A DNA stretch of 32,113 nucleotides from Lachnospiraceae bacterium (GTDB taxonomy: Bacteria > Bacillota > Clostridia > Lachnospirales > Lachnospiraceae). Below are positions 11,714 through 29,104 of the stretch, one piece after another. The first letter of the stretch is position 1, and each line of letters starts with the position of its first letter. The translations under genes and the position numbers were made by a program. The stretch spans positions 1 through 32,113 of the forward strand of contig JAIKXH010000167.1 of NCBI GenBank assembly GCA_024684215.1, read 5' to 3'. The notes under the pieces are model-generated. The model did no database searches. It worked only from the letters and a program-made list of their open reading frames with translations, and was not told the origin of the DNA.

Positions 11714-14700
11714 AAGCGAGCCTCCTTAACTGTTGCATATGAGTCCTTAATATATCGTCAACCGGCTCTTCTTCAAGATAGTTAAGCAGGCTTTTTTCCA
11801 AAGCCGCTGCAGGAGCATTACCTTCCTGTGCCAGTTTTCTTAAAGGACTGGTGCAAACAACTACGTGACTGGGTCCTGCTTTACCGTCCATAAGCATGAA
11901 CTCGTAAATGATTCCCAGATTATCATTGGATTCACAATTGTCTATTACAGTGACTATAGGTCTAAAACCAAGCCAATTAAGCATGCTCACTCGGCTTCTT
12001 TCAATTATCTCATACCACTGCGGAGTAGTAAAGTCCTCACACTTAAATTCTTTTAATGCGGGGTGATCCTTTGCTATAAGCGTACCAAGGGTTCCGACAG
12101 GAATGGGCTTTCCCATGGACTCGGATATGCTTTTAAACATAGGATAATTCCAAAAATCCGTGCAATAAGCTCCCGGAAGGCTTCTGTTCTCCGAAGGATT
12201 TAAATAAAAGAGTACGGATTTACCGCAGTCAACGGCAGCATCGGTCTCCACCATGTCCGTAGTTATGGCTACCTTTCCCGACTCTGTAACCTCGAAGCTG
12301 TGCTCGCTTCCGTCCTCTTCTTCCGCTACAAACACATCCGTTTTAACCTTGATGTTTTCAGCTTTATCGTAACCCCACAGCGTATAATGATTCTCTGCTA
12401 TCAAATCTTTGTCCGAATAAACCTTCAGGTTTAAAACATATTTTTCAATATCTGCGCTTTTAGGGGTCTTTATGTCAAATGCACCGATTTCATAGAGTCC
12501 GCAGCCCTCCAAAGCCTTAGGTTTTGTTTCTTTTTCGTAAACAGGCTTTTCATCTTTGGTATTTATCAGAGTCACTTTTAGTTTTAGCGATTCCGGCATG
12601 CTTTTTTTATAATATGAGAGCTTTACATTCAACCTGAAATCATCGCCGTTTGAAAATACAAAATCACTGAATTCTCCAAGGACGACAACAGCGGAGCAAA
12701 ATTCCCTCCAATCCATAGGACTTATAAGTCCCTTGTTTTTCATAAGCGCGTTAAGCGGTCCCACAAGCGCAGTTCCCTGTCCTGAATAATCCTGCAGATC
12801 AAGGATCTGGAAGCCTGCCATACACGAACTTCTAAGAGCTGCCTCCAATTCATTTTTATAGCATTCTATAGCCAATGCGCCTGAGGATCTAAAATAACCG
12901 TCGGCTCTTTTTGTGAGGCTCATGTCCTCTAATCTTTCCTGGAAAACTTCAAGATTTCTAGCCTGGCAAACACCGTTATATTGAGTTATTTCATTATAAT
13001 CGGGATAAATAAAATACTGTCCGATTTCGTGAGAAACTACCGGAATTTCGGGCACAAGCTCTCCTTTTGCCTCACTCAGCTTAACTCTCTTTACGCCCGT
13101 GCCGTATTGAATCTCTATAGTTCCGTCGCTTTCTTTACCCGCTGCCGCGGACATTTCTTTATAAGATGGCTTTATCGCCTCATCATAATTCCAATCGGTA
13201 GAAGGCTTCGATTTTTGAATCCTTCCGAGTGGCGCATCACACATAGCATATGAGCCTCTTATCTGGCGCTCTTTTGTGAATCTTACACCCGAAAAGAAAT
13301 CATCATTGGGTAAAATGTTTGGTACCCACTGAAAATTGTTTGACCCTTGAGTATACATTATGTCGGGACGAAGCTCTTTATATCCGCCCATGAGTTCGTT
13401 TATGGCATCCTTGTCTCCCCAGAGTTCGTTTCCCATGGACATCATTACAAATGAAGGGTGTCCGGCAAATTCATTTATAATATTAAAGCCTTCCTGCTTT
13501 AAGAATTCCTGCGCATCCTTAACATCACCATACTCGTCCTCATTCTCGCCGTGCCATGTTCCCCAGAAAGGAATCTCAGGCTGAAAATATATTCCGAGAA
13601 GGTCCGCAGCGATAAAAGCCGCCTCGGGAGGTGTAGCGGTGTGACATCTCTCATGATTGATGCCCCAGTCCTTTGCAATCTTAAAGTCCTTAAGCCATCC
13701 GGTTACATTCATTGGTGCGAAGCCGGAAAGCGGAAAAAGCATCCCCTGATGTCTGCCCCTTAAAAAAGTCTTGGTTCCGTTTATCTCAAATTTATCTCCC
13801 GCAGCCTTAAACTCTCTTAAACCGAACCAGAGGTATTTCTCAAATATTTCGGCTCCGTCCTCATCGGTTCCGGAAAATTTTATTCGATATACGTAAGGCT
13901 CTTCCTCGTCCCAGGTTTTTGCATTTTTCCCAAGTGGAAGCTCCAGTTCAATCTTGTTTTCACCGGGGTTTAAGCTCTTTGTATGAGAAGTTACGGGTAC
14001 CGCACCCTTTTTTATATCAAGATATTTATCAAGAATATCAAAATCGGTGGCCAAAGCCTGTTCTTTATCGGCTCTTGTCTCCCATGCGGATATATCCGAA
14101 TCCGCTGCCAAAAGCTTGCTTTTTAATATGCAAAGATCGGCGCCTATCTTAATCTCTATATTTTCTGTATCAAAGCTTTCGATATCGGCTTTAATAAGCG
14201 CCTTTTTAGCATTAAAATCGCAAAATGTCGTTGCACTCTGTAAACGCGCCCCCTCGCATATCTCTAGAGATATCTCGCCAAGGATACCGTTCCAGTTGGT
14301 CTGGGTATCGGGGCTTGTCATATGTCCGCCGTTTGCAACATAATCCGTATTTGAGACCATAATCGTAATCTCGGGATTTGCAGAATCGATAAATCCCGTA
14401 AGATCATATACATGCTTTGCAATAAAGCTATCCCTTTTTCCGACAAATTTTCCGTCCACCCATACATATGATTTTCTGGTTCTCTCAAGAGTCAGATAAA
14501 AATGCTTTGACGCTATGTCTTTTTTGCTCTTTAAGGGAAGCTTTACCGATTTTTTGTACCAGCTGTATCCCTCAAATTTATATACTTCTGTAAGGAAATA
14601 TGTCTCTCTCGCTCTGTTGGCTTCACCCTTTTTTGCATATGCGGTGGAATTTGGAAGCACAATGGAATCTTCAAAAACAATGTTTTCGAAGTGCCCTTCC

Positions 14701-14765
14701 AATCCCTTTTTATCTTTGTCAAGACAAAAACTCCACTCTCCGGCAAGATTAAGCTTTGTACCCAT
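11709..14765 (-). CDS. Glycoside hydrolase family 2 protein
   Basis: About 1018 aa, cytosolic (no signal peptide). An N-terminal jelly-roll sugar-binding domain (about 1-180), an Ig-like domain and a TIM barrel follow the GH2 plan. The predicted acid/base is E447 in MSMGNELWG, and the nucleophile is E580 in VVSHEIGQY. The last 180 residues form an extra domain (about 840-1000) with the LNWLGFRPIVTVIDNCES segment seen in some long GH2 enzymes. GH2 covers beta-galactosidases, glucuronidases and mannosidases; I cannot fix the substrate. The ATG at 14765 is 11 nt from AAGGAG; a TTG two codons upstream (14771) is the alternative. A terminator separates it from the ACT gene, and its end overlaps the start of the c-di-GMP gene. 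Confidence 0.85.
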   Translation of the reverse strand: MGTKLNLAGEWSFCLDKDKKGLEGHFENIVFEDSIVLPNSTAYAKKGEANRARETYFLTEVYKFEGYSWYKKSVKLPLKSKKDIASKHFYLTLERTRKSYVWVDGKFVGKRDSFIAKHVYDLTGFIDSANPEITIMVSNTDYVANGGHMTSPDTQTNWNGILGEISLEICEGARLQSATTFCDFNAKKALIKADIESFDTENIEIKIGADLCILKSKLLAADSDISAWETRADKEQALATDFDILDKYLDIKKGAVPVTSHTKSLNPGENKIELELPLGKNAKTWDEEEPYVYRIKFSGTDEDGAEIFEKYLWFGLREFKAAGDKFEINGTKTFLRGRHQGMLFPLSGFAPMNVTGWLKDFKIAKDWGINHERCHTATPPEAAFIAADLLGIYFQPEIPFWGTWHGENEDEYGDVKDAQEFLKQEGFNIINEFAGHPSFVMMSMGNELWGDKDAINELMGGYKELRPDIMYTQGSNNFQWVPNILPNDDFFSGVRFTKERQIRGSYAMCDAPLGRIQKSKPSTDWNYDEAIKPSYKEMSAAAGKESDGTIEIQYGTGVKRVKLSEAKGELVPEIPVVSHEIGQYFIYPDYNEITQYNGVCQARNLEVFQERLEDMSLTKRADGYFRSSGALAIECYKNELEAALRSSCMAGFQILDLQDYSGQGTALVGPLNALMKNKGLISPMDWREFCSAVVVLGEFSDFVFSNGDDFRLNVKLSYYKKSMPESLKLKVTLINTKDEKPVYEKETKPKALEGCGLYEIGAFDIKTPKSADIEKYVLNLKVYSDKDLIAENHYTLWGYDKAENIKVKTDVFVAEEEDGSEHSFEVTESGKVAITTDMVETDAAVDCGKSVLFYLNPSENRSLPGAYCTDFWNYPMFKSISESMGKPIPVGTLGTLIAKDHPALKEFKCEDFTTPQWYEIIERSRVSMLNWLGFRPIVTVIDNCESNDNLGIIYEFMLMDGKAGPSHVVVCTSPLRKLAQEGNAPAAALEKSLLNYLEEEPVDDILRTHMQQLRRLAY

Positions 14766-14792
14766 TCCCAATAAGTCTCCTTACATTTTTGT

Positions 14793-14826
14793 AAAAAAAT
14801 ACTGTCCGAAATAACTTCGAACAGTA
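14793..14826 (-). terminator. Intrinsic terminator after the ACT-domain gene
   Basis: Stem of about 11 bp (arms 14800-14810 and 14816-14826, 5-nt loop) with one G-U pair when read on the minus strand, followed by seven T (14793-14799). It lies about 25 nt after the ACT gene stop and only 14 nt before the GH2 ribosome site. GH2 expression therefore depends on readthrough or on a promoter I could not locate. Confidence 0.85.
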
Positions 14827-14850
14827 ATATTTTATCATACTAAAGCATAA

Positions 14851-15255
14851 TCAGCAAAGTGAAAAGCCCCTGCTTCTAAGGCTGTTTTCCACTTCCTTTG
14901 CCTCCTGGCAATGCATAACCATAATAGGGCAGCCGGACTCTCTGTTGTAAGAAAGATACAAGTAATTTACATTGATGTTTGAATTATTTAAAGCTTCAAG
15001 GAGCTTGTTGAGATTTCCGACCTCATCCTTTACTTCAACTCCGATTACATCGGTAAGCTTGCAGATAATCCCTGCTTCCTTAAGCTTTTCGCAAGCCTTT
15101 TGAGGTTCGCTCACAACCATTCTCACAATACCGTACTCAGCAGAATCGTTGGTTACGGAGCCCAGTATGTTTATATTTTCCTTGGCTAAAATGCTTGTGA
15201 TCTCAAGCATCTTTCCCTTTGTATTTTCAGCATAAATAGAAACCTGTTTTAACAT
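14851..15255 (-). CDS. Tandem ACT-domain protein
   Basis: 134 aa made of two ACT domains: about 1-67 (VSIYAENTKGKMLEITSILA, then NINILGSVTND) and about 70-134 (GVEVKDEVGNLNKLLEALNN, then INVNYLYLSY). There is no catalytic domain. ACT pairs of this size (COG4747-like) bind small ligands, usually amino acids, and are presumed sensors. It has its own extended -10 promoter and its own terminator, so it forms a single-gene unit inserted between the GH95 and GH2 genes. Its role relative to the sugar genes is not evident. Confidence 0.85.
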   Translation of the reverse strand: MLKQVSIYAENTKGKMLEITSILAKENINILGSVTNDSAEYGIVRMVVSEPQKACEKLKEAGIICKLTDVIGVEVKDEVGNLNKLLEALNNSNINVNYLYLSYNRESGCPIMVMHCQEAKEVENSLRSRGFSLC

Positions 15256-15320
15256 TTTATAACTCCCTTCGGGTAAACTATATCTCTTTAAAGCGTTACA
15301 CTTTAACGTCCTAAATCGGT

Positions 15321-15342
15321 ATTATAACAGATTCGCTTACAA
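15321..15342 (-). promoter_or_regulatory. Extended -10 promoter of the ACT gene with a cre-like sequence
   Basis: Minus-strand TGTTATAAT (15321-15329) is an extended -10 element with perfect TATAAT and no good -35. Directly upstream, 15328-15342 reads TTGTAAGCGAATCTG, which matches the catabolite-responsive element consensus except at its last two fixed positions. The overlap suggests possible CcpA control, but the site is imperfect. Confidence 0.6.
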
Positions 15343-15431
15343 TATTCCACCTTTTTTATAAATACTTGCCATAAGTTTTCCTTTTACGAACAAATATCTT
15401 AAGTATTTTCGTCAAGGTCAGACATATTCAT

Positions 15432-17819
15432 TTAAATAGTCAAAGATGTCCTTGCTCCGGCTTTTAGATTGATGCTAACGGTTTTACCATCAATCTCCAC
15501 GCTTTCTTTTGTATCGGCATCAGCAGTAAGGAAAGCCGACGAAAGTTTTCCTTTTTCCCATGAAAGGTCTACTGTTATTCCGCCTTTTGCTCTAAGCCCT
15601 TTTACTTTTCCGCTCTCCCACTCATTTGGAAGCGCAGGAAGCAGATGGATCACTCCGTCTGTGCACTGAAGCACTGCTTCTGCGATTGCAGCGGTTCCGC
15701 CGAAGTTTCCGTCTATCTGGAAAGGCGGGTGATTGTCAAACATATTTGGATTTGTTGAATTTGCAAGGAGCATAACGAGGTTTTCATACACCTTTTCGCT
15801 GTCATAAAGCCTAGCCCACATATTTGTTATCCACGCCCTGCTCCAGCCGGTGTGCCCGCCTCCGTGAGAAAGTCTTCTTTCAAGCGTTGCCCTTGCTGCT
15901 TTTGCAAGCTCCGGTGTTTCACCGGGACTTATCATATCTTCGGGATAAAGGGCAAATAAATGAGAAATATGCCTGTGACCGATTTCAACCTCATTATAGT
16001 CCTCGGCCCATTCTTTAATCTGTCCATATTTACCGATCTCAGGTTTTGGCATTTTATCAAGTATAGCCTTCAATTCATCGGCAAAAGCCTTCTCTTTCGA
16101 AAGCTCATCATCGTTCTTAAAATAACCGCTTTCTTCCAAAATTCCAACAGCCTCAATAATGTCTTCGAAAAGAGCAGTGATTATTTGCGAATCCATAGAA
16201 GGGCCTATGCAAAGACATCCCCTTACACCTTTATCCGTCTCGTAGGTATTTTCGGGAGATACGGAGGGGCAAGTAACCAGTCTGCCCTTTGAATCCTCTA
16301 TCAAAAACTCCGTGAAAAATTCCGCCGCACCCTTCATAAGGTGATACTTGTCTTTGAGGAAATCTATATCTTTTGTATATTCGTAATGTTCAAATACGTG
16401 AAGTGCAAGCCAGGCTCCGCTCATTGGCCATATTGTGGCAGGCATCCAGAGATCCTGCGGCGCAGTATCTCCCCATATATCCGTATTGTGATGGCACACA
16501 TAACCTTTGGTTATTCCATACATTTCTTTGGCAGTGTTCCGACCGTTTATGGCCACCCTCTCCAACAAGTCAAAAAGAGGCAAATGAAACTCCGATAAAT
16601 TGCAGCTCTCAGCAGGCCAATAATTCATTTCGGTATTGATGTTTACCGTAAATCTGCCGCCCCATGCGGGCCACATATCCTTGTTCCAGATACCCTGTAG
16701 ATTAAGCGGCTGCGTCCCCGGTCTGCTTCCCGAGATCATAAGGTACCGTCCAAAATTAAAATAAAGCTCCATCAGCTTATTGTCTGATTTGGATGCAACC
16801 TTTAAGCTGCCATCGTCGGCATTATTACCTCGTTCGTTTAAGCCCTCTTTCATCCTGAGAAGTCTTTCATCAGTAGGAAGATTGCTTGCTCCGTCGCTGT
16901 TATCGTTTAGCTCAAAGCTCACTCTGTCAAAATATTTTTTGTAATCTTCAATATGAGCTTTTTTTACATCCTCATATTTCTTTGAAAGGACCGTCTCAGC
17001 TTCTGCGATTGCCTTTTTCGTGTACTCTTTTCCTTCGTAATAGTTTGTTCTCGCGGTAACGATTATCAAAGCTTCATCGGCATCTTTACATACCAGCTTT
17101 CCGCCGACGGTTTTAATGCTTCCGCCTATGCAAGCGCCGGCTAAAACAGCTGCGAAAAAGATTCCGTTTTCAGAGCCCGTACCGCCGTTATAAAGGATCA
17201 TGTTATCCTTAACCGGCCTGTTATCATCGTAGTAATCGTCTCTGCCGTCAATATCCGCCTTAAAGCTGACTGCGCCTTTCTTTGAAGATTTTACATGCAC
17301 TATCAAAGCGTTATCGGGTGCGGTTACAAAATACTCTCTTGTAAAAGTTACGCCGCCGGTTTCATATTTTACCTTTGCAACGGCCTCACCTATATCAAGA
17401 ATTCGCTCATAAAAAGCATTTTTCTTTGATTCTTTATCGCTGTCTTTAGAATCATTTTCAGCGCCAAATCTTCCGTAGACTTCATTTTCTTTATCACTGT
17501 CAAATTCTATGTGTAAATCGCCAAGAGGCATATAGTGCCTGCAATTGGGGGTTACGCCCTGCATTTTTTCAAAAGCTACCTTTTCAGCAGCGGGGATATC
17601 TCCCTTGAGCAATAGGTCTCTTACTTCTTTTAAGCCTTCTTTTGCATCGGGATTTACGCGGTGTCTTAAGCCTCCTGACCAAACGGAATCCTCGTTCAGT
17701 CCCACAAGTTCCTTTGATATTCCGCCGTATACCATGCCCCCTATTCTGCCGTTTCCTATAGGCATGGCCTCGTTAAAATCATTCGCAGGTTTTGTATATT
17801 TAAGTATGTTTTGGCTCAT
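15432..17819 (-). CDS. GH95 alpha-L-fucosidase-type glycoside hydrolase
   Basis: 795 aa from the ATG at 17819, without a signal peptide. The start lies 2 nt after the HAD stop, with GGGGA upstream; an ATG five codons earlier (17834) is possible. The family hallmarks are present: RFTVNINTEMNYWPAE with the two Asn (N393, N395), PSVSPENTYE with the general acid Glu (E523), HGGGHTGWSRAW, and FQIDGNFGG with D703. Together they match the Asn-activated inverting mechanism of GH95. The family acts on alpha-1,2-L-fucosides (for example on xyloglucan or host glycans), and some members are alpha-L-galactosidases. Being intracellular, it must act on imported oligosaccharides. It is coupled to the HAD gene. 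Confidence 0.92.
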   Translation of the reverse strand: MSQNILKYTKPANDFNEAMPIGNGRIGGMVYGGISKELVGLNEDSVWSGGLRHRVNPDAKEGLKEVRDLLLKGDIPAAEKVAFEKMQGVTPNCRHYMPLGDLHIEFDSDKENEVYGRFGAENDSKDSDKESKKNAFYERILDIGEAVAKVKYETGGVTFTREYFVTAPDNALIVHVKSSKKGAVSFKADIDGRDDYYDDNRPVKDNMILYNGGTGSENGIFFAAVLAGACIGGSIKTVGGKLVCKDADEALIIVTARTNYYEGKEYTKKAIAEAETVLSKKYEDVKKAHIEDYKKYFDRVSFELNDNSDGASNLPTDERLLRMKEGLNERGNNADDGSLKVASKSDNKLMELYFNFGRYLMISGSRPGTQPLNLQGIWNKDMWPAWGGRFTVNINTEMNYWPAESCNLSEFHLPLFDLLERVAINGRNTAKEMYGITKGYVCHHNTDIWGDTAPQDLWMPATIWPMSGAWLALHVFEHYEYTKDIDFLKDKYHLMKGAAEFFTEFLIEDSKGRLVTCPSVSPENTYETDKGVRGCLCIGPSMDSQIITALFEDIIEAVGILEESGYFKNDDELSKEKAFADELKAILDKMPKPEIGKYGQIKEWAEDYNEVEIGHRHISHLFALYPEDMISPGETPELAKAARATLERRLSHGGGHTGWSRAWITNMWARLYDSEKVYENLVMLLANSTNPNMFDNHPPFQIDGNFGGTAAIAEAVLQCTDGVIHLLPALPNEWESGKVKGLRAKGGITVDLSWEKGKLSSAFLTADADTKESVEIDGKTVSINLKAGARTSLTI

Positions 17820-17821
17820 AT

Positions 17822-18505
17822 CTACTTTCCCCATTTGCTGAAATCCATACCGTCAAAAGGAAGTCCGTCCCCCGGCAGATCACCTATTTCCTTGCCATTA
17901 TCCGGGCCTTTTAAATACTCCATTATCACCGGGTACATAATATCATAGCCGTCGAATCTGATGGCTCTCATACCAAAATCTCTTGCGGCATCAACATTTT
18001 TTTGTGAATCGTCTGTAAAAAGACACTCCTCTGGCTTTAACCCATATTTGTTGCAAATACATTCATATATTTCCCTGTTGGGCTTAATTATCTTCTCCTC
18101 ATAGGAAAATACTCCGCCGTCCATGTAATCCTTGAATTCCAGTGCGTCCGGATTGCTCCTTACGATAAAATCGGAATAGTTTGAAAGGAAATATACATTG
18201 TATCCAAGGCTCTTTAGTTCCTTGACCCATGCAGTGGCATAATCCCTTTTTCCGATAAGCTCATGAAAGTTTTCCATCGCTATATCAAAGCTTTTTGCGT
18301 ACTGCCCGGCACTTTCTCTTAAATGAGAAAACACCTCCTCTTCAGGGATAACATTTCTGTCAAGCTCAGTCCACCAGCCGCTCTGCCATACAGCATCGGA
18401 AACTGCCTTTCTTGTGGCTTCGTCTTCAAATAAAGACTCCATATATTCGTTCCATTCAAACTTTATAAGCACCTTGCCTATATCAAAGATCACATTTTTA
18501 ATCAT
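17822..18505 (-). CDS. HAD-superfamily hydrolase (YihX-like)
   Basis: 227 aa. HAD motifs: I FDIGKVL with nucleophile D8 but Gly at the usual second Asp (G10); II LSN (S108-N109); III K141-P142; IV FTDDSQKN (D165-D166). The D-x-G form of motif I is normal in the YihX subgroup, whose E. coli member dephosphorylates alpha-D-glucose 1-phosphate. Its place between the mannose-6-phosphate isomerase fusion and the GH95 gene suggests action on a sugar phosphate, perhaps mannose or glucose 1-phosphate, but this is inference. A tail of about 27 residues rich in Gly and Asp follows the core. An AGGTGA ribosome site precedes the ATG. Confidence 0.88.
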   Translation of the reverse strand: MIKNVIFDIGKVLIKFEWNEYMESLFEDEATRKAVSDAVWQSGWWTELDRNVIPEEEVFSHLRESAGQYAKSFDIAMENFHELIGKRDYATAWVKELKSLGYNVYFLSNYSDFIVRSNPDALEFKDYMDGGVFSYEEKIIKPNREIYECICNKYGLKPEECLFTDDSQKNVDAARDFGMRAIRFDGYDIMYPVIMEYLKGPDNGKEIGDLPGDGLPFDGMDFSKWGK

Positions 18506-18529: not shown

Positions 18530-18590
18530 TCATGTATTTCACATTTGAAATCGCCCGGCTTATCCTGTTCATGTATTACACATTTGAAAT
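18530..18590. repeat. 22-bp direct repeat duplicating the 3' end of the fusion gene
   Basis: Copies at 18530-18551 and 18569-18590 differ at one of 22 bases, with a 39-bp period. The right copy holds the last codons and TAA stop of the esterase-isomerase gene. In the left copy the stop triplet reads AAA instead. Confidence 0.8.
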
Positions 18591-20717
18591 AATAAGCTCC
18601 ATTTTGCCCTTAAGCTCTACTTTAGCAGTACCGGCCGGAAGTATCAAATGATTTCCTTTATTAACCTTGTAGCCGTTAAGCTGCCCCTCTCCCGAAAGCA
18701 CGCTCACGCATAGGAAGGGTACGTCTATTGCAAAGTTAAATTCTCCGTCTACGCTTACCTTTGAAACAGTGTAATACTTGCAGGAATACATCTCGGTAAC
18801 CGCATTTGCTTCAGTATTTGCAAAGCTCTTTATACTGTCGCTTGCACTCTTTGCCGGCACGGTTATTACATCGATGCTCTTGTCGATATGTAGCTCACGG
18901 GGCTTTCCGTTCTGAAGTCTGTCATAGTCGTAAACCCTGTATGTGATATCACTGTTTTGCTGAGTTTCCAAAAGAAGGATTCCGCCTTTTATCGCGTGTA
19001 CGGTACCGGGATCTATCTGTATAAAATCTCCTTTTTTAACAGGAATCTCTCTGATGAATTTATCCCATTTTCCGTTCTTTATCATATCGGAAAGCTCTGC
19101 CTTATCTTTGGCATTATGGCCTACAACAAGAGTTCCGTTTTCGGGGCAATCAAGCACGTACCAGCATTCTGTCTTACCAAAGGAGCCGTTCTCATTTACC
19201 TTTGCGTATTCATCATCGGGATGAACCTGTATGCTTAAGTCTGCCTTGGCATCGATGATTTTGGTAAGAAGCGGGAATCTGTCATAGGGAAGGACCCTGC
19301 TTCCGTCCGCAGCCTTGTTTCCAAACAGCTCCGGATGCGTGTTCCAAAGCTCACTGAGCTTTACTCCCTCGTATGCTCCGCATGCTACGATTCCCTCACC
19401 GTTTTTATGTGCGGAGATTCCCCAGCACTCTCCGATATCATCGCCGGGCTCATCATAGCCGTAGTCCTCGCGAAGTCTCGTTCCGCCCCAGATTGTATGG
19501 GCAAAAGCAGGCTTTAAAAACAAGGGCTTGGGATTGCCGGAGGCTATCACGCTAACCAGATAGAAAGGAAGCTCGCTCTTTTCAGGTGCATCTACAATCT
19601 CTATCTCCACGATATGCTCTCCGCCTTTTCCGTGGTCAAGGAGTGTATCAAGGCAAAGCTTATCTCCCCAGGTTTCATCGAAGTTTCCGTCAAGAGTGGC
19701 TGCCACCTTTCCGTCAACCTTTGCAACAGCAACAGGTGCGGGCAGCTTTATAGTTCTCCTGTACTGAACACCGATGCAGCTTCCGCTTACCTTAAAGGCA
19801 ATCTTTGCTCCTTTTTTCGTAGCGGTCCATCCGTTCTTAAATATGTCGGTGATATGGTTTTGTGGCTCGGTATCTGCGGTCCATCCTTCGTTTGAAATGA
19901 TATCCGCATTTTTGTTTCTGTATCTTACCGAATCCTCATAAGCATTGGCAGTAAGGGGGGCCGGGAGTTTATTGCAACTGCCCGAAGCATCGTTACAAAT
20001 ACTTGCAGAAGTGTCGTCGCCGGAGCTTGCCTGTGCGCCTTCTGCCTTGCTGTTTTCTGCCTTGCAGCATACCTCACATTTTCTGATTTTGTCGAGGCCG
20101 TATGTTATCACGCTTGCAACCATATCATGTCCGATATCGTTTGGATGAAGGTCATCGGGTGTAATCTCTCTGTTCTCAATCTCTCCGGATAAAAGAAGCG
20201 GATAGATAGTGCTCTGCATAGAAAATGCAGGGATATTGTAATGTCTTGCAATCCTTGAATGCATGAGCTCAGCGCTTGAACCATTGTCATAGCAGACATT
20301 ATAGAATGTGTATACCGCAGGTTTATTGGGCGCCGATAAAAGCTTTCTCACCACTCCCTCATAGGTTTCCATATAATGGGGAGTGGACATATCGTTAACC
20401 GCATACTCAACGCTTATAACATCGGGATTGTAGCTAAGTACATCCTCTGCTGCTCTTGCGCATCCAAACTGGGAGTCGGTAGCACCGATTCCGGCATTTA
20501 CAAATGTAAGCCTTGCCTTGGGAAAAGTTTTCTCCCACCATGCAAACACTCTTGCTGCGTAGCATTTGGAGGGCTCGGATGCAAGGCTTCCCTGAGTGAT
20601 GGAACCGCCCAAAAAAGCGATCGTTAAGCTCTCTCCCTTTTCGGCACGCTCGAAGGCTGCCTTTAAAGCGGTCGTATCACCGATATTCTTTATTCCTGCT
20701 TCATAATTAATTGACAT
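18576..20717 (-). CDS. Fusion: CE17-type SGNH acetylesterase + CBM35-like domain + mannose-6-phosphate isomerase
   Basis: 713 aa, cytosolic. Residues 1-212 are an SGNH esterase: GGSITQG with Ser39, Gly in NAGIGA, N108 in AVNDM, and D188/H191 in PDDLHPND. A Ser/Ala/Cys-rich linker (about 215-250) leads to a beta domain (255-394) like the CBM35-type module of CE17 mannan esterases. Residues 396-713 are a full-length class I short mannose-6-phosphate isomerase (EC 5.3.1.8), beginning PKPLFLKPAF, with metal ligands Q497, H499, E517 and H574 and Arg594. The reading frame is continuous, with no internal start or ribosome site at the junction (near 19535). The esterase would strip acetyl groups from manno-oligosaccharides, and the isomerase makes fructose 6-phosphate from the final product. 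AGGAG precedes the ATG. Confidence 0.92.
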   Translation of the reverse strand: MSINYEAGIKNIGDTTALKAAFERAEKGESLTIAFLGGSITQGSLASEPSKCYAARVFAWWEKTFPKARLTFVNAGIGATDSQFGCARAAEDVLSYNPDVISVEYAVNDMSTPHYMETYEGVVRKLLSAPNKPAVYTFYNVCYDNGSSAELMHSRIARHYNIPAFSMQSTIYPLLLSGEIENREITPDDLHPNDIGHDMVASVITYGLDKIRKCEVCCKAENSKAEGAQASSGDDTSASICNDASGSCNKLPAPLTANAYEDSVRYRNKNADIISNEGWTADTEPQNHITDIFKNGWTATKKGAKIAFKVSGSCIGVQYRRTIKLPAPVAVAKVDGKVAATLDGNFDETWGDKLCLDTLLDHGKGGEHIVEIEIVDAPEKSELPFYLVSVIASGNPKPLFLKPAFAHTIWGGTRLREDYGYDEPGDDIGECWGISAHKNGEGIVACGAYEGVKLSELWNTHPELFGNKAADGSRVLPYDRFPLLTKIIDAKADLSIQVHPDDEYAKVNENGSFGKTECWYVLDCPENGTLVVGHNAKDKAELSDMIKNGKWDKFIREIPVKKGDFIQIDPGTVHAIKGGILLLETQQNSDITYRVYDYDRLQNGKPRELHIDKSIDVITVPAKSASDSIKSFANTEANAVTEMYSCKYYTVSKVSVDGEFNFAIDVPFLCVSVLSGEGQLNGYKVNKGNHLILPAGTAKVELKGKMELIISNV

Positions 20718-20867: not shown

Positions 20868-22025
20868 TCAGTTTTTTAATATGCTGTGAATGAATGCGGT
20901 CATCTCGGCTGCCATCTCGTTGTGCTCAGGGATACGTGGATGTCCCGGAGTTGCAGCTCCGTTTCGCTTGTACATGAAATGGTAGAGACCACCGTTTTGT
21001 GACGCACCGTCCTTCATCGAAGTTCCCGGCTCTGTAGCTTTACCATCCTCTTTGTTTATCTTGCTTACCACCTCTTCAATCGCCTTATCCCAGGCGGGAT
21101 CGTGCATGAGAAGCGTGGTCGCACATACAATGGTTACACCCGGATAATATGCGCGGAGTTTTTTTATAAATGCCTCGTACTCGCGTCTCCACTCGCACGC
21201 TTTTTCGCCGTCATAATCTTCCTTCATGATATCAACCGGATTGGCATCATTTTGGCCGAAAGCCAGGATTATCACATCGGGAATCCACTTTGTATAATCC
21301 CAGTGATTCTCTCCTAAAGGCGGATTATATTTTAGCATATCATAACAGGATTTAACACCTCTGAAGTCCTCGGGTCCGTTAAACCAGCCGGTCTTATCAA
21401 GAAGAGATATTCCGCCCTGTGAAGTGTCATGAAGCTCCATATCAAGCGCTCTTGCAACCTGCCATGAATATGAATAATAACTGTTTGAAAACCTTCCCTC
21501 GTTGTTTTCGGGATCGGATTTTCCGACATAATCAAGGGCCTCGCATACCTCTCCGCAGGAAACGCTGTCGCCTATAACTTCAAGCTTTTTTGAAGGTAAG
21601 GATGCTAGCTTTGAAACGGCTTCATTCTCTCCTATTTCCATACCGTAAAAGGTCACATAGTGCTGGCCACCGTCCTGGCGTTTAAAGACCATAATTTCAT
21701 GGTTGCCGGAAGACAAGTTTTTGAAATAATCATCCTCTGAAAATTCTTTTCCGTCTTCGCATCTTACCGCCTCGGAAATATCGTATGTGGTGATTCCTGA
21801 ATCTTTTAATGTTATTTTTCCCTGCTTACCGTCTACGATTACTCCGATGGAGTTTTCGGCCCATGCTCTGTGGTTTTCAAAAGTAAGACGGAGCGTATTT
21901 CCGGTAAAACCTATCTTAAAAAAACTTGCGGCATAGATAAGCACAGGTGCTTTTTTATCTGTAAAATCAATTCTTCCGCTGTAGATAAATTCTGCGGCAT
22001 CAGGTGATATTATTTTTAAGTTCAT
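20868..22025 (-). CDS. CE2-type acetylesterase (jelly-roll + SGNH)
   Basis: 385 aa with no signal peptide. Residues about 1-140 form a beta jelly-roll (ending HYVTFYGMEIGE), followed by an SGNH hydrolase domain: block I IGDSVSCG with Ser154, block II Gly in SQGGIS, block III N259 in AFGQND, and H362 in GHPRIPEH. This two-domain order defines carbohydrate esterase family 2. The Roseburia intestinalis CE2 enzyme works with a CE17 partner to remove acetyl groups from all positions of manno-oligosaccharides, and a CE17-type domain is encoded next here. AGAGG precedes the ATG. An intrinsic terminator just upstream separates it from GH130_1. Confidence 0.9.
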   Translation of the reverse strand: MNLKIISPDAAEFIYSGRIDFTDKKAPVLIYAASFFKIGFTGNTLRLTFENHRAWAENSIGVIVDGKQGKITLKDSGITTYDISEAVRCEDGKEFSEDDYFKNLSSGNHEIMVFKRQDGGQHYVTFYGMEIGENEAVSKLASLPSKKLEVIGDSVSCGEVCEALDYVGKSDPENNEGRFSNSYYSYSWQVARALDMELHDTSQGGISLLDKTGWFNGPEDFRGVKSCYDMLKYNPPLGENHWDYTKWIPDVIILAFGQNDANPVDIMKEDYDGEKACEWRREYEAFIKKLRAYYPGVTIVCATTLLMHDPAWDKAIEEVVSKINKEDGKATEPGTSMKDGASQNGGLYHFMYKRNGAATPGHPRIPEHNEMAAEMTAFIHSILKN

Positions 22026-22099: not shown

Positions 22100-23275
22100 C
22101 TACTTTCCAAGCAATTCGAGATTTTTCTTAATAAGCTCGCATCTTTGAGCGACACATTCAACACTTCTGCCGGGATCTGCAGGTGTGTTAAATACATAGT
22201 CGGTAAGCTTCTCGATTGTGGTTGTGGCAACATGAAGTCTGGTATCCGAAGATGCATAGTAGATAAATACTTCATTTTTATCGTTTACGATAGCACCATT
22301 GGTGAATACTACATTAGATACATCGCCTACTCTCTCGCCGCCTCTTGGGCCTATAAGCATTCCCGAAGGCTCTGCGATAACCTTTGAAGGATCCTTTAAA
22401 TCAGTGGCAAAAGCATATATTACGTAGCGAAGGCCGGCGGCGGTGTTTCTTACACCGTGAGCGATGTGTATCCAGCCTTTCTCCGTCTTTATGGGCACCG
22501 CACCGGCACCGTTTTTAGCCTCAGTAATAGTGTGATATTTTCTGAGTGAAGTCATTTTTTCCTCATCGATAACTGCGTGAGTTATATCATCACAAAGTCC
22601 GAAGCCTACTCCTCCGCCGCTTCCGGTCTCGATAAAATCGTCCATGGGGCGTGTATAAAAAGCGTACTTTCCGTTTACAAACTCCGGATGAAGTACCACA
22701 TTTCTCTGCTGAGGAGAACGAAGAGTCTGTAAATTATCCAGTCTCTCCCAGTTCTTTAAATCCTTTGTGCGGACGATTCCGGCAGCTGCGGTTGCAGCGG
22801 ACAGATCGTTTACAGTGGTATCCTTGCTTTCAGAGCAGAACACTCCGTAGATATAACCGTCCTCATGCTTAGTGAGTCTCATATCATAGACATTGGTCTC
22901 GTCCTTGCATGTATCGGGAAGAAGTATGGGGTAATCCCAAAACTTAAATCCGTCCACACCGTTATCGGACTCAGCTACCGCGAAAAATGATTTTCTGTCA
23001 TTTCCTTCGACTCTCGCTACGAGATAGTATTTTCCGTTAAGATATATTGCTCCGGAGTTAAAGGTTGCATTGACTCCCAGTCTCTCCATGAAAAACGGAT
23101 TTGTATCTTTACTTATATCGTACATCCATGTTACGGGAATCATCTCTCTGGTAAGTACAGGGTTCTCGTATCTGTCATATATTCCGTTATAAAAATCGGA
23201 TTTTTTATTCTTTCTGGATGTAAGTTCATCTACCTTCTTTTGAAGCTCATAATATTTCTCGTGAATCATATCCAT
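22100..23275 (-). CDS. GH130 subfamily 1 beta-1,4-mannosylglucose phosphorylase
   Basis: 391 aa, the usual size. Phosphorolyses 4-O-beta-D-mannosyl-D-glucose to alpha-mannose 1-phosphate and glucose (EC 2.4.1.281). Subfamily 1 signatures are visible: [18 protein letters not shown] (87-104), the catalytic Asp131 in TNVYDMRL (the same number as the acid of the characterised Bacteroides enzyme), [15 protein letters not shown], and [12 protein letters not shown]. It starts 7 nt after the epimerase stop with TAGGAG overlapping that stop, so translation is coupled. Its substrate is exactly the product of the upstream epimerase acting on mannobiose. A terminator-like hairpin follows. Confidence 0.95.
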
Positions 23276-23282
23276 AATTCTC

Positions 23283-24518
23283 CTAAACTTCTATTCCTGC
23301 AGCTCTTTTCATTACTTCCATGCACATACGTCCATTGTGATAGGGACATTTCCAGGGCTCAACGATAGGCTTTTTAGTGTCGGGATTTCCATCCTTATCA
23401 ACCTGTGAAAACCATTCGCTTCCTCCGCGCTTATCCATCACAAAATCTTTTATAAACTGCCATACGTTTCCTGCAGCTTCTAAGTATTCATTCTTTGATT
23501 TATCTGCCAGGTATCCGTTCAAAAATCCAAGCACAGTTTCAGCCTGTACCCACCAAACTCTCCATTCGTTTACCACACCCTTATCGCATTCGTTTGCAAG
23601 GCTTCTGCCGTCAAATGCGGTCTTATAGATGTTTTCTGTCAGATCCTTTGTGATCGGGTACATCTTATCTTCGTACTTTTTATTTCCGAGAATCTTTACT
23701 CCCCTGTCCATAAGCCAGGCGGTTTCAATATCGTGACCATAGGAATGGAGGTCGATGATCGAATTGTAAGAAGCATCAAAGAATACTTCCTGTCTGTGAA
23801 GAGAAGGATTATAAATCTTGTCCGCAAAGGTATCCATCATCCAGGCAAGTCTCTCGCCGATATAAGGATCCTTTGATACTCTGTAAAGCTCGCTGTACGC
23901 CTCAAAAACATGGAGAAGAGTGTTCATGGTCTTGTCCGCCATAACACCGTTTTCAGAGAGCTTTTCGTTTGATTCCGGCTTAAAATCAACGGTTTTTGCC
24001 TCAAGATATCCGATCTCATCGGTGAAATTATCTTCAATGATTCCTACAAGCCTCTTTGCAAGCTCCAAAGCCTGTCTGTCACCTATGGCATCATAATACG
24101 AAGCCAGTGCATAGATGCAAAAAGCCTGATTATAACAGTGCTTTGTGGTATCTGCGGGAGAGCCGTCATAGTTTAATGACCAGAATATACCGCCGTTTTT
24201 CTTGTCAATGCACTTTCCGACAAGGAAATTATAAGCATGCTTTGCTTCATCTTTTACATCAAGGGCAGTATAGCCATACTTAATAAAATCACCGTCGGTT
24301 ATAAGCCCCTGCTTATACAAAAGTAAAACATTACTGAAAAACCAGGTGATACGGCTGTTTAATATGCATCCCTTTTCCGCCTTCATATTGAGTTCAAGAT
24401 TATATGAAAGCCATCCGTAATATCCGCCATATTTATCATCGCGCAGTCCCTTCCAAAAAGGTATTATCGACTGAAGCAAATGAACTTTCATCTCGCTTGA
24501 CATATTTTCAAGATTCAT
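23283..24518 (-). CDS. Cellobiose/mannobiose 2-epimerase (AGE family)
   Basis: 411 aa, an (alpha/alpha)6-barrel protein of the N-acylglucosamine 2-epimerase family. It carries the cellobiose 2-epimerase signatures [14 protein letters not shown] with His262, RVWWVQAE, and KCPYHNGRM with His394, the two catalytic histidines of EC 5.1.3.11 enzymes. In mannan pathways it converts beta-1,4-mannobiose to mannosylglucose. It lies between the two GH130 phosphorylase genes, which use its substrate and product series. A 93-nt gap with a strong RNA hairpin separates it from GH130_2. The ATG at 24518 follows an AAAGGGATGGG ribosome site. Confidence 0.95.
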
Positions 24519-24611: not shown

Positions 24612-25637
24612 TTAACACTTTCCAAGATCAGTGTCATTCCAATCTGTATCTGAATGATCCTTGATGTATTTAACAATCTCATCAAAGTAGCAGAATGCAA
24701 CTCCTACATAGCTGTCAGCGCATCCGTAGTAAAGAGCGATCTTTCCGCTCTCGGGATCGTGAACCGTAGCGCAAGGGAAGCATACATTGGGAACGAAGCC
24801 TCTCTCCTCGTACCACTCTTCGGGGGTAAGAAGGAAATTCTCACATCTGTAAAGAACCTTTGAAGGCTCGTCAAGATCAAGGATGGCACCGCCGATTGAA
24901 TATACATATCCGTTACAGGTTCCGCTTACGCCGTGATAGAATATAAGCCAACCTTCACTGGTCTCAATGGGGGCTGCTCCTCCGCCGATCTTGAGGGACT
25001 CCCACCACATTCCGTTACGTCCCATAACATGTCTGTGATGTCCCCAATACTCGAGGTCAGGGCTCTCTGAAATAAAGATATCACCGAAAGGAGTATGTCC
25101 GGAATCTGAAGGACGGCTGAGCATCTTGTACATTCCGTTAATCTTTCTGGGGAAAAGTACTGCATTTCTGTTGAAAGGAATGAAAGGGCACTCCATCTTT
25201 GTCCAGGTCTTGAAATCCTGTGTCTTTGCCATTCCGATGGATGCTCCGTAGAAATCCTGGCACCAGATTGCATAGTAGGTATCCTCTACCTTTACAAGGC
25301 GGGGATCGTATGCATACTTAGGCATAAAGTCGTTGCCGTTCTCATCCTTGAAACGGATCTTGTCCTTTTCAAAGTCCCAGTGAATACCATCCTTACTTCT
25401 TCCAAAATAGATGAAGGAAATACCGTTTGTCTGCTCACCGCGGAATACTCCGACGTATGCTCCTTCATAAGGAACTACGGCACTGTTGAAAATTCTTGCA
25501 ACGCCTTCAATGGGGTTTCTGCCTATGATAGGGTTTTCGGAATATCTCCAAATAGGTGCGCCGGGCTTAAGATCAGCAGGCTTGTCCTGCCAAGGTACAT
25601 TAGGTACTGCTGGTGCAATCATTTTAATTTCGCTCAT
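24612..25637 (-). CDS. GH130 subfamily 2 beta-1,4-mannooligosaccharide phosphorylase
   Basis: 341 aa. Subfamily 2 enzymes remove terminal mannose from beta-1,4-manno-oligosaccharides with phosphate, giving mannose 1-phosphate (EC 2.4.1.319). Visible features: ENPIIGRNPIEGVARIFNSA near 34-53, catalytic Asp111 in KYAYDPRLV, RPSDSGHTPFGD, and GGGAAPIETSEGWLIFYHG. The protein is five-bladed-propeller sized and has no signal peptide. It is the first gene after the promoter at 25705-25733, with an AAAGGAGA ribosome site. It works with the epimerase and GH130_1 encoded directly downstream. Confidence 0.95.
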   Translation of the reverse strand: MSEIKMIAPAVPNVPWQDKPADLKPGAPIWRYSENPIIGRNPIEGVARIFNSAVVPYEGAYVGVFRGEQTNGISFIYFGRSKDGIHWDFEKDKIRFKDENGNDFMPKYAYDPRLVKVEDTYYAIWCQDFYGASIGMAKTQDFKTWTKMECPFIPFNRNAVLFPRKINGMYKMLSRPSDSGHTPFGDIFISESPDLEYWGHHRHVMGRNGMWWESLKIGGGAAPIETSEGWLIFYHGVSGTCNGYVYSIGGAILDLDEPSKVLYRCENFLLTPEEWYEERGFVPNVCFPCATVHDPESGKIALYYGCADSYVGVAFCYFDEIVKYIKDHSDTDWNDTDLGKC

Positions 25638-25774: not shown

Positions 25775-25814
25775 TTACTTAAATTTAACTAGTATATAAG
25801 CTAAATTTACTTAA
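25775..25814. promoter_or_regulatory. Candidate operator pair centred on TAAATTTA
   Basis: On the minus strand, TTAAGTAAATTTAGCT (25799-25814) is identical over 16 bases to the site upstream of GH36 at 29212-29227. A related copy TAGTTAAATTTAAGTAA lies at 25775-25791. The first copy overlaps the stop codon of the LacI-type gene (25807-25809). The placement just upstream of a promoter suits a regulator site. Confidence 0.5.
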
Positions 25815-26829
25815 TTTTTCTAACACTCTCCCTAATTACCATTTTTCCTTCAATTACGCTTACCGCTGCCCCGCCCTTTTGACCGGACATTTTCTTTATA
25901 AGATTGTCAACGCAAACGCTTGACATTTCATCAATATCCACCGCATAGGTTGTTATTCCGATATCGCATAATCCGGGATAAATAAAATCATCATATCCAA
26001 CCACCGATATATCCTCAGGCACGGCATAACCGGCTTTGTGTAGCTTTTTTATCAGCATTCCGGCGGTAAGATCGCAGTTACAAAAGAAAGCTGTCGGCAT
26101 TTCTTTCGGGAGGATCATCTTGTTTTCCTCATCGATATATTCTCCGGAGTCGTCTCTGTCATCGATTATCCATTCTTTTTTTAAAGGTATACCGTGCTCA
26201 AGCAGCGCCTTCATATATCCAAGATATCTGTCTGTTATGGATCCGGTGTTTCCTACAGTTCCGACATAAGCTATATTTTTATGCCCCATTCTGATCAGAT
26301 AATCGGTCATGTAATATCCGCCGTAATAGCTGTCGGATATTACCACATCGGTTGCCTGCTTTTTATCCATAAAATCCATAAATACCAGCGGGATATTCAG
26401 CTGTCTTTGCAAAAAAGTTATATACGCATCTGAAAGCGCACCTATTACTATAAGGCCGTCGATTTTGCTCTCGGATACAATCATGGGAAGAATACTGTCT
26501 TTTTCCATTACCGAAGTCACAACCTCAAGCATGGAAAAGCTTCCTCTGTCAACGCAGCTTCTCGCAACCTGCTGATACATCTGCCAGTAAAACGAAGAGT
26601 ATCCGCCAAGGTAGCCCTCTCTTATAAGGACACCTATGTTATAGCTGGTGATCTGGGCACGTTTTTTTGCCACGGAAGGCTGTACATATCCAAGCTTGTC
26701 CGCAAGCTTTATTATCTTTTCGCGCATTTGCTCGCTGACACCTTTTTGCCCCGAAAGCGCCTTGGATACGGTTACAACACTGACCCCCATCTCCTTTGCG
26801 ATATCTGCAAGTTTTACACTCTTTGCCAT
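25807..26829 (-). CDS. LacI-family transcriptional regulator
   Basis: 340 aa from the ATG at 26829, chosen because AGAGG precedes it. The open frame upstream has only a TTG without a ribosome site. An N-terminal helix-turn-helix (KLADIAKEMGVSVVTVSKALSG, about 6-27) is followed by a periplasmic-binding-like sensor domain (INIGVLIREGYLG-type strand, ICNCD-like segment AFFCNCDLTAGM, VVGYDDFIYPG). It lies between GH36 and the phosphorylase operon, in the same direction, so it is probably the local repressor responding to a manno-oligosaccharide or sugar phosphate. Candidate binding sites are at 25775-25814 and 29212-29227. Confidence 0.92.
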   Translation of the reverse strand: MAKSVKLADIAKEMGVSVVTVSKALSGQKGVSEQMREKIIKLADKLGYVQPSVAKKRAQITSYNIGVLIREGYLGGYSSFYWQMYQQVARSCVDRGSFSMLEVVTSVMEKDSILPMIVSESKIDGLIVIGALSDAYITFLQRQLNIPLVFMDFMDKKQATDVVISDSYYGGYYMTDYLIRMGHKNIAYVGTVGNTGSITDRYLGYMKALLEHGIPLKKEWIIDDRDDSGEYIDEENKMILPKEMPTAFFCNCDLTAGMLIKKLHKAGYAVPEDISVVGYDDFIYPGLCDIGITTYAVDIDEMSSVCVDNLIKKMSGQKGGAAVSVIEGKMVIRESVRKIK

Positions 26830-26890
26830 CTTAATACCTCTGCTTTTACTAAACACTAAAAACAACCTGTATTTTGCATAGACTGCAGTT

Positions 26891-29104
26891 CTACTGCTGT
26901 CTCACAAAATGGATAAGCTTTGATTTATAGTCACCCCAAGGGTTTTGAACAAAAATTCCGGCTTCCATAATCGTTCTTCCCGACAATACCTCATTCTCTC
27001 CCTCGATTAAATATTTTGCATCGGGATCAAGGCCCGCAAATCTTATAAGTCTGCTGTGATAATTGGGTCTTCCGACAACCTGAACGAATGTAAACAAGGC
27101 TTCGGACTTATCCTTGCTGACCACGCCGTAGCAGTCGTAAAATCTGTTTTCTCTGTAGGAAGCTATGCGGTAATAATCGCCGCTTCTTACAAGGCTGTGA
27201 TACTTGTGGTACATAGCGGTCTGCTCAGGGATCTGCTGCCTGTCGCTCTCGGGAATCTTTGTTATATCAAGTTCATAGCCAAATGTACCCGCAAGTGCTA
27301 CATGACCTCTTGTCTCAAAAGGTGTCACCCTTCCAACAGTATGGTTAGGGCAATCCGAAACATGTGCGCCTATCGATGAAAGCGGGTAGATAAGTGCCGT
27401 TCCTTCCTGGATTCCGAGTCTTTCTATGGCATCAGTATCATCGGAGCACCAAATCTGAGGTCCGTAGTAAAGCATTCCGGGATCAAATCTCGCTCCTCCG
27501 CCGGAACAGTTTTCAAGGAGTAGATTAGGGAAGGTTTTTACAAGCCTCTCCTGGAGTTCATATACCGCAAGGGCAAATCTGTGGCACAGCTCTCCCTGAT
27601 TGTCTTTTCCGAGATATGCGCTTCCTATGTCAGTTATCTGCCTGTTCATATCCCACTTGAGATATTCTATATTTGCGCTTTCAAGCACGGTTTTTATGCT
27701 GTTCCAGGTATGCTCAAGCACTTCAGGTCTGGTCAGATCAAGTACATACTGGTTTCTCGACCTTGTAGGTACTCTTCCGGGTATTGCAATTGCCCAGTCA
27801 GGATGAGCTCTGTATAGGTCAGAGTCCGGTGATATCATCTCAGGCTCCATCCATATACCGAACTTAAGCCCGATTTTATTTACCTCATCAACGAGGTATT
27901 TGAGGCCGCCTTTAAGCTTGTCCTCATTGACGTTCCAGTCACCGAGCGATGAGTTGTCATCGTTTCTTTTTCCAAACCATCCGTCATCCATAACAAGCAT
28001 TTCAATGCCGGATTTTTTAGCCTCACGTGCAATATCCAAAAGCTTTTCGGTATTAAAATCGAAATAGGTAGCTTCCCAGTTATTAATAAGAATAGGTCTT
28101 TCCTTATCCTTATAGGGGCTTCTTATCAAATGATTCCTATAAAGGTCATGATAGGTGCGGCTCATTTTGCCAAGGCCTTCATTTGAATAAACCAAAGCTA
28201 CCTCAGGTGCTTCAAAGGACTCACCCTTTTTAAGCTCCCATTTAAAGCCGCCGGGATTAATGCCCATAACGGCTCTTACCGAGTCAAACTGACTCTTTTC
28301 AACCTGCGCAAGGAAATTGCCGGAATAGATAAAGTTAAATCCGTATACTTTTCCTTTTTCCTGAGTAGCGCCCTTTTCCAAAAGCGCCATGAAAGGATGC
28401 TCCTGGTGTGAGGATTCCCCCTTTACGGAGCCTACACTCGTTTTTCCGTAGCCGATAGGCCTGACATCAATCTGACGCTCTCTTGCCCAGGATCCGTGAA
28501 GCGTGAGAAGCTCATAGTTTTCACTGTCCATATCAAAGGAAGCACTAAGGACCTTAGTCAGATATATACTGCTTTGCGAATCGTTTATGATCTTTACGCT
28601 TCGTATAAGCGCATCACTGTCCTCAAAGACCGTATATCTGAGAACTGCCTTTAAAGAAAGCGATTTGTCGGAGGCGTAAATCTCAAGACTTTTAGCCTTC
28701 GCACCCATTTTGCCGTCCAAAGATTTTTCGTTTTCAAAGGTCTGAGGCAATCCATTAATAACGGTTTTTCCGTCTATGATCTTATAATCATCGTAAGTAA
28801 AATTAACAGCGCTATGACCCTCGCAGTCTATTACCTCGACAGCACCCTCTCTGTAATCGCCCAGTCCGTTTCCGGGGAATTCGCAAGGGAACGTGTCCAT
28901 AAACGAGCCCCTGTCGCGGTTATTTTTTGAAGGGACAAATGGATTCTCATCTATTCTTAAAAGATGCAAAGGTACTTCATCAAGCTTCGGTCCGTAGTAT
29001 ATGTGCCCGATAAAAGCCTCTTCATCAACTATTCCGATAATATATGAAGTATTTTCAGTATCGATTTTAAAGGTATTGTTCTCTTTGTTAAAAGTGATAT
29101 TCAT
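26891..29104 (-). CDS. GH36 alpha-galactosidase
   Basis: 737 aa, the usual length, no signal peptide. Removes alpha-1,6-linked galactose from galactomannan or raffinose-type oligosaccharides (EC 3.2.1.22). An N-terminal beta-supersandwich (about 1-320) precedes the TIM barrel with VMDDGWFGKR, the nucleophile Asp485 in LKWDMNRQ, ENCSGGGARFD, and the acid/base Asp555 in WCSDDTDAIERL. A short beta domain ends the protein. AGGAGG lies before the ATG at 29104. The gene is followed 61 nt later by the LacI-type gene and is the first gene of this transcription unit. It fits side-chain trimming before the phosphorylases act. Confidence 0.95.
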   Translation of the reverse strand: MNITFNKENNTFKIDTENTSYIIGIVDEEAFIGHIYYGPKLDEVPLHLLRIDENPFVPSKNNRDRGSFMDTFPCEFPGNGLGDYREGAVEVIDCEGHSAVNFTYDDYKIIDGKTVINGLPQTFENEKSLDGKMGAKAKSLEIYASDKSLSLKAVLRYTVFEDSDALIRSVKIINDSQSSIYLTKVLSASFDMDSENYELLTLHGSWARERQIDVRPIGYGKTSVGSVKGESSHQEHPFMALLEKGATQEKGKVYGFNFIYSGNFLAQVEKSQFDSVRAVMGINPGGFKWELKKGESFEAPEVALVYSNEGLGKMSRTYHDLYRNHLIRSPYKDKERPILINNWEATYFDFNTEKLLDIAREAKKSGIEMLVMDDGWFGKRNDDNSSLGDWNVNEDKLKGGLKYLVDEVNKIGLKFGIWMEPEMISPDSDLYRAHPDWAIAIPGRVPTRSRNQYVLDLTRPEVLEHTWNSIKTVLESANIEYLKWDMNRQITDIGSAYLGKDNQGELCHRFALAVYELQERLVKTFPNLLLENCSGGGARFDPGMLYYGPQIWCSDDTDAIERLGIQEGTALIYPLSSIGAHVSDCPNHTVGRVTPFETRGHVALAGTFGYELDITKIPESDRQQIPEQTAMYHKYHSLVRSGDYYRIASYRENRFYDCYGVVSKDKSEALFTFVQVVGRPNYHSRLIRFAGLDPDAKYLIEGENEVLSGRTIMEAGIFVQNPWGDYKSKLIHFVRQQ

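What the first reader, a model, noticed from the sequence alone, without database searches (positions are those of the whole stretch)
18576..20717. In-frame fusion of a mannan acetylesterase to mannose-6-phosphate isomerase
One continuous 713-codon frame joins a CE17-type SGNH esterase with its CBM35-like module to a complete class I isomerase. The join is abrupt (IASGN then PKPLFLKP), as if an isomerase lost its start and was appended. The two activities are the entry and exit steps of mannan catabolism and are not consecutive. All catalytic and metal-binding residues of both parts look intact. I do not know of a described enzyme with this pairing.
Basis: partly seen in the sequence, partly recalled or inferred. 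Interest (0 to 1): 0.78.

Follow-up and report, generated by a model that had tools for sequence, protein, structure and literature searches.

The report
Mannan esterase fused to mannose-phosphate isomerase
A gut-type bacterium encodes one protein that carries both an enzyme that strips acetyl groups off plant mannan fragments and the enzyme that feeds mannose phosphate into glycolysis, and related bacteria appear to have made the same join several times independently.

Summary
One 713-codon frame, on the minus strand (20717-18576), joins a complete CE17-type mannan 2-O-acetylesterase (SGNH + CBM35) to a complete class I mannose-6-phosphate isomerase (ManA) with no linker, inside a Roseburia-like mannan operon. 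An assembly error is very unlikely: I found 13 distinct fused proteins in Lachnospiraceae, one in the named strain Roseburia porci, and 8 of 31 genomes of the window's genus carry one (20 of 31 have separate neighbouring genes). It is the only ManA found in its genome. The catalytic and metal residues checked are kept in 13 of 13, both parts look under purifying selection, and AlphaFold models both as well folded. The 13 show six junction types and need six changes on the CE17 tree (four forced), so fusion probably recurred. In the loci searched, CE17-ManA is fused in 12 of 39 neighbouring pairs, GH1-ManA in 20 of 20, 18 other pair types in 0 of 249; but a GGDEF-CE17 fusion outside that count shows ManA is not the only partner. 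A GH1-ManA protein is already published for R. intestinalis; I met no description of CE17-ManA. New variant of a known kind; why the parts are joined is open.

The parts
18576..20717 (-). CE17-ManA fusion gene (713 aa + stop)
20082..20711 (-). SGNH esterase domain (residues 3-212); S39, N108, D188, H191 = RiCE17 Ser41, Asn110, Asp190, His193
   Evidence: RiCE17 residues from a passage of PMC13276840
19971..20081 (-). disordered, length-variable linker between SGNH and CBM (residues 213-249)
   Evidence: pLDDT below 50 at 219-248; dN/dS high and alignment gappy
19536..19970 (-). CBM35-like module (residues 250-394), clamp tryptophan W350 = RiCE17 Trp326
19524..19538 (-). junction ...SGN|PKP..., no linker
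18579..19529 (-). class I mannose-6-phosphate isomerase (residues 397-713); Q497, H499, E517, H574, R594 present
   Evidence: role of these residues recalled
20868..22025 (-). CE2 esterase, next gene upstream
22100..23275 (-). GH130 (mannosylglucose-phosphorylase position)
   Evidence: subfamily by gene order, inference
23283..24518 (-). mannobiose/cellobiose 2-epimerase-like (Mep position)
24612..25637 (-). GH130 mannooligosaccharide phosphorylase-like
25807..26865 (-). LacI-family regulator
26891..29104 (-). GH36 alpha-galactosidase

Best explanation
A true bifunctional enzyme of beta-mannan catabolism. The N-terminal CE17 part removes 2-O-acetyl groups from imported manno-oligosaccharides; the C-terminal ManA part, the only isomerase found in the genome, turns mannose 6-phosphate (from GH130 phosphorolysis and a phosphomannomutase) into fructose 6-phosphate. 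The two parts act on different substrates and are joined like beads, without channelling. The fusion arose when the sequence between two co-transcribed neighbours (CE17 stop, ManA ribosome site and start) was lost in frame, and this seems to have happened several times. It is kept at the least because the ManA N-terminus tolerates a partner; a further benefit from tying isomerase dosage to the catabolic enzymes is possible. Shown by computation: single frame, conservation, intact residues, constraint on both parts, recurrence. Inferred: both activities, cytosolic site, any benefit of being joined.
For: ORF and families; residues S39, N108, D188, H191, W350 and Q497, H499, E517, H574, R594 invariant in 13 of 13 fusions; AlphaFold pLDDT 90.7, pTM 0.85, only 219-248 below 50, junction ordered; Foldseek TMt 0.95 to 6hfz and 0.92 to 1qwr. 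Sole ManA found. Constraint: in the one pair with dS under 1 (L060/L061) omega is 0.11 SGNH, 0.03 CBM, 0.02 PMI; other computable domain comparisons 0.035-0.123. Mannan locus; like setting in R. porci (SBP, permease, epimerase, 2 x GH130, CE2, fusion, GH113). GH26 and two PGM/PMM genes elsewhere in the genome. Recurrence: six junction types; CE17 tree 6 changes, bootstrap 6-6, 4 forced; ManA tree 5 changes, 3 forced; AU test rejects one clade for 10 short-branch fused rows, p 5.7e-10. RiGH1_D2 of R. intestinalis is an active phosphomannose isomerase though part of a larger protein (PMC6385246 passages).
Against: No assay of this protein. Trees alone cannot tell gain from loss; window clade + L066 as one clade is not rejected (p 0.255), though their junctions differ; L032 and L075 sit on long CE17 branches with a long-branch warning, and R. 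porci (L070) is unresolved on both trees. The 10-row group of the AU test was chosen after seeing the tree. Most dS values exceed 1.2 or are saturated. In-frame internal start candidates exist in 6 of 13. No domain-orientation score came with the model. Nothing shows that fusion improves growth.
Confidence: 0.8

Rival explanations
1. Neutral fusion: short gaps between co-transcribed neighbours are deleted now and then and the product is simply tolerated; no benefit of being joined.
For: Aligned CE17 and ManA domains lie 7-186 nt apart in the 34 unfused neighbouring pairs printed; junctions differ and look like chance deletions; the zero-linker join leaves both folds whole. GGDEF-CE17 fusions show that fusion in these loci is not confined to ManA.
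Against: 18 other neighbouring pair types among 12 seed families are fused in 0 of 249 cases, some with smaller gaps. Tolerance peculiar to the ManA N-terminus could still explain this.
Confidence: 0.45
2. Dosage lock: fusing ManA to an upstream catabolic enzyme guarantees isomerase whenever the pathway is made and so avoids mannose-6-phosphate build-up.
For: ManA is fused downstream of two unrelated upstream enzymes, CE17 and GH1; sole ManA found; an imbalance of hexokinase and MPI is proposed to cause mannose toxicity in bees, and MPI disruption can repress growth in other bacteria (PMC5090037 passages).
Against: Unfused relatives already have the genes side by side. The same paper reports that Gilliamella strains without MPI are not impaired by mannose, which is apparently not taken up there. 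In a PMI-ROK protein the PMI is upstream. No growth data.
Confidence: 0.35
3. Two products: an internal start or proteolysis releases free ManA from the fused frame.
For: In-frame ribosome-site-plus-start candidates before the ManA part in 6 of 13 (window, L062 and L065 GTG 40 codons before WGG; L032, L075, L077 at other places).
Against: 7 of 13 have none in frame, and the six are not at one place; the strings are common by chance; the junction is ordered in the model.
Confidence: 0.1
4. Assembly or sequencing error removed a stop.
For: Most of the records are metagenome-assembled genomes.
Against: Seven genomes from several record series (RGIG, RUG, Tb.RUG, UBA and the window) share the zero-linker join; the named strain R. 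porci has a fusion of its own.
Confidence: 0.01

Closest known systems
RiGH1 of Roseburia intestinalis (ROSINTL182_05469/70), GH1-phosphomannose isomerase (PMC6385246, passages); FpGH1 'GH1 isomerase' (PMC8262883, passages)
   Same: ManA as C-terminal part of a larger protein in the same kind of mannan locus; the isomerase part of RiGH1 was shown active
   Different: Upstream partner is a GH1 glycosidase, not the CE17 esterase; CE17 (RiCEX) is a separate gene there
RiCE17 (PDB 6hfz/6hh9), mannan 2-O-acetylesterase
   Same: SGNH + CBM35; triad, oxyanion Asn and clamp Trp present; 53% identity in the fold match
   Different: RiCE17 ends after the CBM35
ManA / PMI class I of Bacillus subtilis (PDB 1qwr)
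   Same: whole domain and motifs, 45-46% identity in the fold match
   Different: stand-alone, with its own start; here the first residues are replaced by the esterase
PMI-ROK fusion (L152)
   Same: class I PMI in a two-domain protein
   Different: PMI is N-terminal there and the partner is a ROK-family protein

Membership tests
CE17 | sequence/fold match to RiCE17 with SGNH + CBM35 | tested here: met
CE17 | Ser-Asp-His triad, oxyanion Asn, CBM clamp Trp (residues named in PMC13276840) | tested here: met
CE17 | 2-O-acetylesterase activity on mannan | not testable with these tools
   needs assay
Class I mannose-6-phosphate isomerase (ManA) | TIGR00218 above cut-off; PF20511 and PF21621 | tested here: met
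Class I mannose-6-phosphate isomerase (ManA) | metal ligands Gln, His, Glu, His and active-site Arg (assignment recalled, from no call) | tested here: met
   Q497, H499, E517, H574, R594 invariant in 13 of 13
Class I mannose-6-phosphate isomerase (ManA) | M6P-F6P interconversion | not testable with these tools
   needs assay
GH1-PMI bifunctional protein (RiGH1) | GH1 domain upstream of PMI | tested here: not met
   no GH1 match in the window protein

The most novel reading that the evidence does not exclude
In Lachnospiraceae mannan loci ManA is a repeatedly selected fusion partner: several separate fusions to CE17 (six by parsimony on the CE17 tree, at least three forced on either tree) besides the GH1-ManA fusions, an adaptive lock that couples mannose-6-phosphate disposal to upstream enzyme dosage.
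Probability: 0.3. Interest if true: 0.65.

Novelty: new variant of a known kind. Interest (0 to 1): 0.5.

Why it matters
It adds a second partner to the known GH1-isomerase fusion and shows a recurrent gene fusion in gut and rumen fibre degraders. Natural fused, one-stop-apart and separate pairs exist within one genus, so the question whether fusing non-consecutive pathway enzymes is adaptive or neutral can be tested directly. Names taken from one half alone will hide the other activity.

Tried and rejected
Open-frame lengths in the genome-search tables suggested fusions in G014, G029 and G293; stop-to-stop translation put the two parts in separate frames (one stop between them in G014 and G029), so they were not counted. 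Internal start for free ManA: no shared candidate. A single clade of the 10 short-branch fusions: rejected. The family draw (397 genomes, 30 loci given, later matches not listed) showed true fusions in G000 and G342 only. The class draw (391 genomes, 20 loci given, later matches not listed) showed no new CE17-ManA fusion; of its 17 new loci I read the frames of 9. Paper searches showed no CE17-isomerase fusion in the listings and passages seen; one search held 104 papers of which 20 were listed, and Michalak 2020 (PNAS, recalled) is not held.

Rows dropped before the trees: ManA domains under 270 aa, CE17 domains under 300 aa or under 33% identity, exact duplicates; the 13 fused rows were kept. 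Label S in the trees includes neighbours whose frames overlap, so the A/S split there is rough. The pair count printed only pair types seen at least twice, counts loci that are related to one another, and knows only 12 seed families, so it could not see GGDEF-CE17. The Fisher values collapse the fused pairs to events but not the unfused ones, and the six short-gap types were chosen by hand: read them as rough.

Full report
What is there. The frame 18576-20717 is on the minus strand and encodes 713 aa without a stop. Residues 3-215 and 250-394 align to the R. intestinalis esterase RiCE17 (6hfz) and 397-713 to B. subtilis ManA (1qwr); Pfam and NCBIfam agree (Lipase_GDSL_2, PMI_typeI_cat, MPI_cupin_dom, TIGR00218 above cut-off). 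RiCE17's Ser41, Asn110, Asp190, His193 and Trp326, as named in a passage of PMC13276840, are S39, N108, D188, H191 and W350 here. The isomerase motifs (ligand roles recalled) are present and invariant in 13 of 13 fusions. AlphaFold2 on a 40-row alignment gives mean pLDDT 90.7, pTM 0.85; only 219-248, between SGNH and CBM, falls below 50, and the junction is ordered. Foldseek finds 6hfz (TMt 0.95) and 1qwr (TMt 0.92).

Setting. Upstream on the same strand lie GH36, LacI, GH130, epimerase, GH130 and CE2, families also named for the R. intestinalis mannan locus (PMC6385246, passages). GH26 and two PGM/PMM genes lie elsewhere in the genome. TIGR00218 and the protein itself find no second ManA in the 92%-complete genome.

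Relatives. All 31 genomes searched of the genus match at least one half. True single frames, checked by stop-to-stop translation, are in 8 of 31 (G000, G005, G006, G009, G010, G020, G024, G025); 20 of 31 have CE17 and ManA as separate frames in one small locus; in 3 (G004, G022, G030) they were not found together. Five more distinct fusions are in Roseburia porci (L070), L071, L075, L077 and L032: 13 in all. In the 34 unfused neighbouring pairs printed the aligned domains lie 7-186 nt apart; in L069 (G014) a TGA stands directly between them in frame.

How often. Measured between aligned domain ends the junctions fall in six types: no linker (7 genomes, window included), 4 aa (L066), 7 aa (L070), 10 aa (L071), 1 aa (L075, L077), 2 aa (L032). 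On the CE17 tree (66 rows) the fused label needs 6 changes (bootstrap range 6-6), 4 forced by starred branches; on the ManA tree (108 rows, quick) 5, 3 forced. One clade for the 10 short-branch fused rows is rejected (p 5.7e-10); the window clade plus L066 as one clade is not (p 0.255). L032 and L075 lie on long CE17 branches and L070 is unresolved. The trees cannot tell gain from loss; the differing linkers, and AAGGAG strings left inside the junctions of L071 and L032 that look like old ribosome sites, favour repeated gain from neighbours. This is inference.

Is ManA special. In 81 loci (window, L060-L139) I counted neighbouring domain pairs within 250 nt among 12 seed families: CE17-ManA 12 fused, 27 separate; GH1-ManA 20 fused, 0 separate; 18 other pair types seen at least twice 0 fused of 249. 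With the 12 fused taken as 5 events, Fisher p is 1.4e-5, or 2.9e-4 against 123 pairs of six hand-picked short-gap types; both are rough. The loci were found with the fused protein as query, so the fused share is inflated; the 8 of 31 in the genus does not suffer from that. Against the claim: three loci (L072, L096, L111) carry CE17 fused to an upstream GGDEF protein, which the seeds could not see, and in L152 PMI stands upstream of a ROK domain. So ManA is the commonest, not the only, fusion partner.

Selection. In the one pair with dS under 1 (L060/L061) omega is 0.11, 0.03 and 0.02 for SGNH, CBM and PMI; other computable domain comparisons give 0.035-0.123 but with dS above 1.2; the SGNH-CBM linker shows no constraint. 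Both halves seem to be kept.

Known work. La Rosa 2019 (PMC6385246; passages) describes a predicted bifunctional protein with a GH1 part (aa 1-246, no activity found) and an isomerase part (aa 247-768, active). In the 774-aa homologue L080 Pfam places GH1 at 6-455 and PMI at 469-773, so the published 1-246 piece was probably half a barrel; I did not have the R. intestinalis sequence itself. In the passages seen of PMC8262883, PMC7666174, PMC13278490, PMC12659350, PMC13276840 and PMC9487903 CE17 is mentioned and no CE17-isomerase fusion.

Verdict. Real, conserved, probably recurrent two-enzyme fusion; new partner for a known kind of ManA fusion; purpose of the joining open.

Noticed in passing
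L072:7964-11110, L111:8282-11119, L096:9467-11119: CE17 is in one open frame with an upstream GGDEF protein (1049, 946 and, shortened, 551 aa; a weak PAS match in the first two), with no Met in the last 25 or so residues before CE17 (other start codons not checked); ManA follows as a separate gene. A c-di-GMP-type protein fused to a mannan esterase looks worth its own study.
   Followed up: partly
L080:8612-10933 and 27 other ManA rows: GH1-ManA fusions of about 775 aa are common in the Lachnospiraceae loci fetched; the published border of R. intestinalis RiGH1_D1 (aa 1-246) seems to cut the GH1 barrel in half.
   Followed up: partly
L152:1489-3366 (L149, L151, L153 have frames of similar length, not scanned): PMI followed by a ROK-family domain in one 626-aa frame.
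   Followed up: no
L069 (G014) and L067 (G029): CE17 and ManA in the same frame with the CE17 stop between them (TGA directly after CE17 in L069): a natural one-stop-apart stage.
   Followed up: partly
window 8246-11641 (-): 1131-aa PAS/EAL/GGDEF protein near the mannan locus.
   Followed up: no
window 11709-17834 (-): GH2-like (1020 aa) and GH95 (800 aa) genes downstream of the mannan genes; GH95 also follows the fusion in L060.
   Followed up: no
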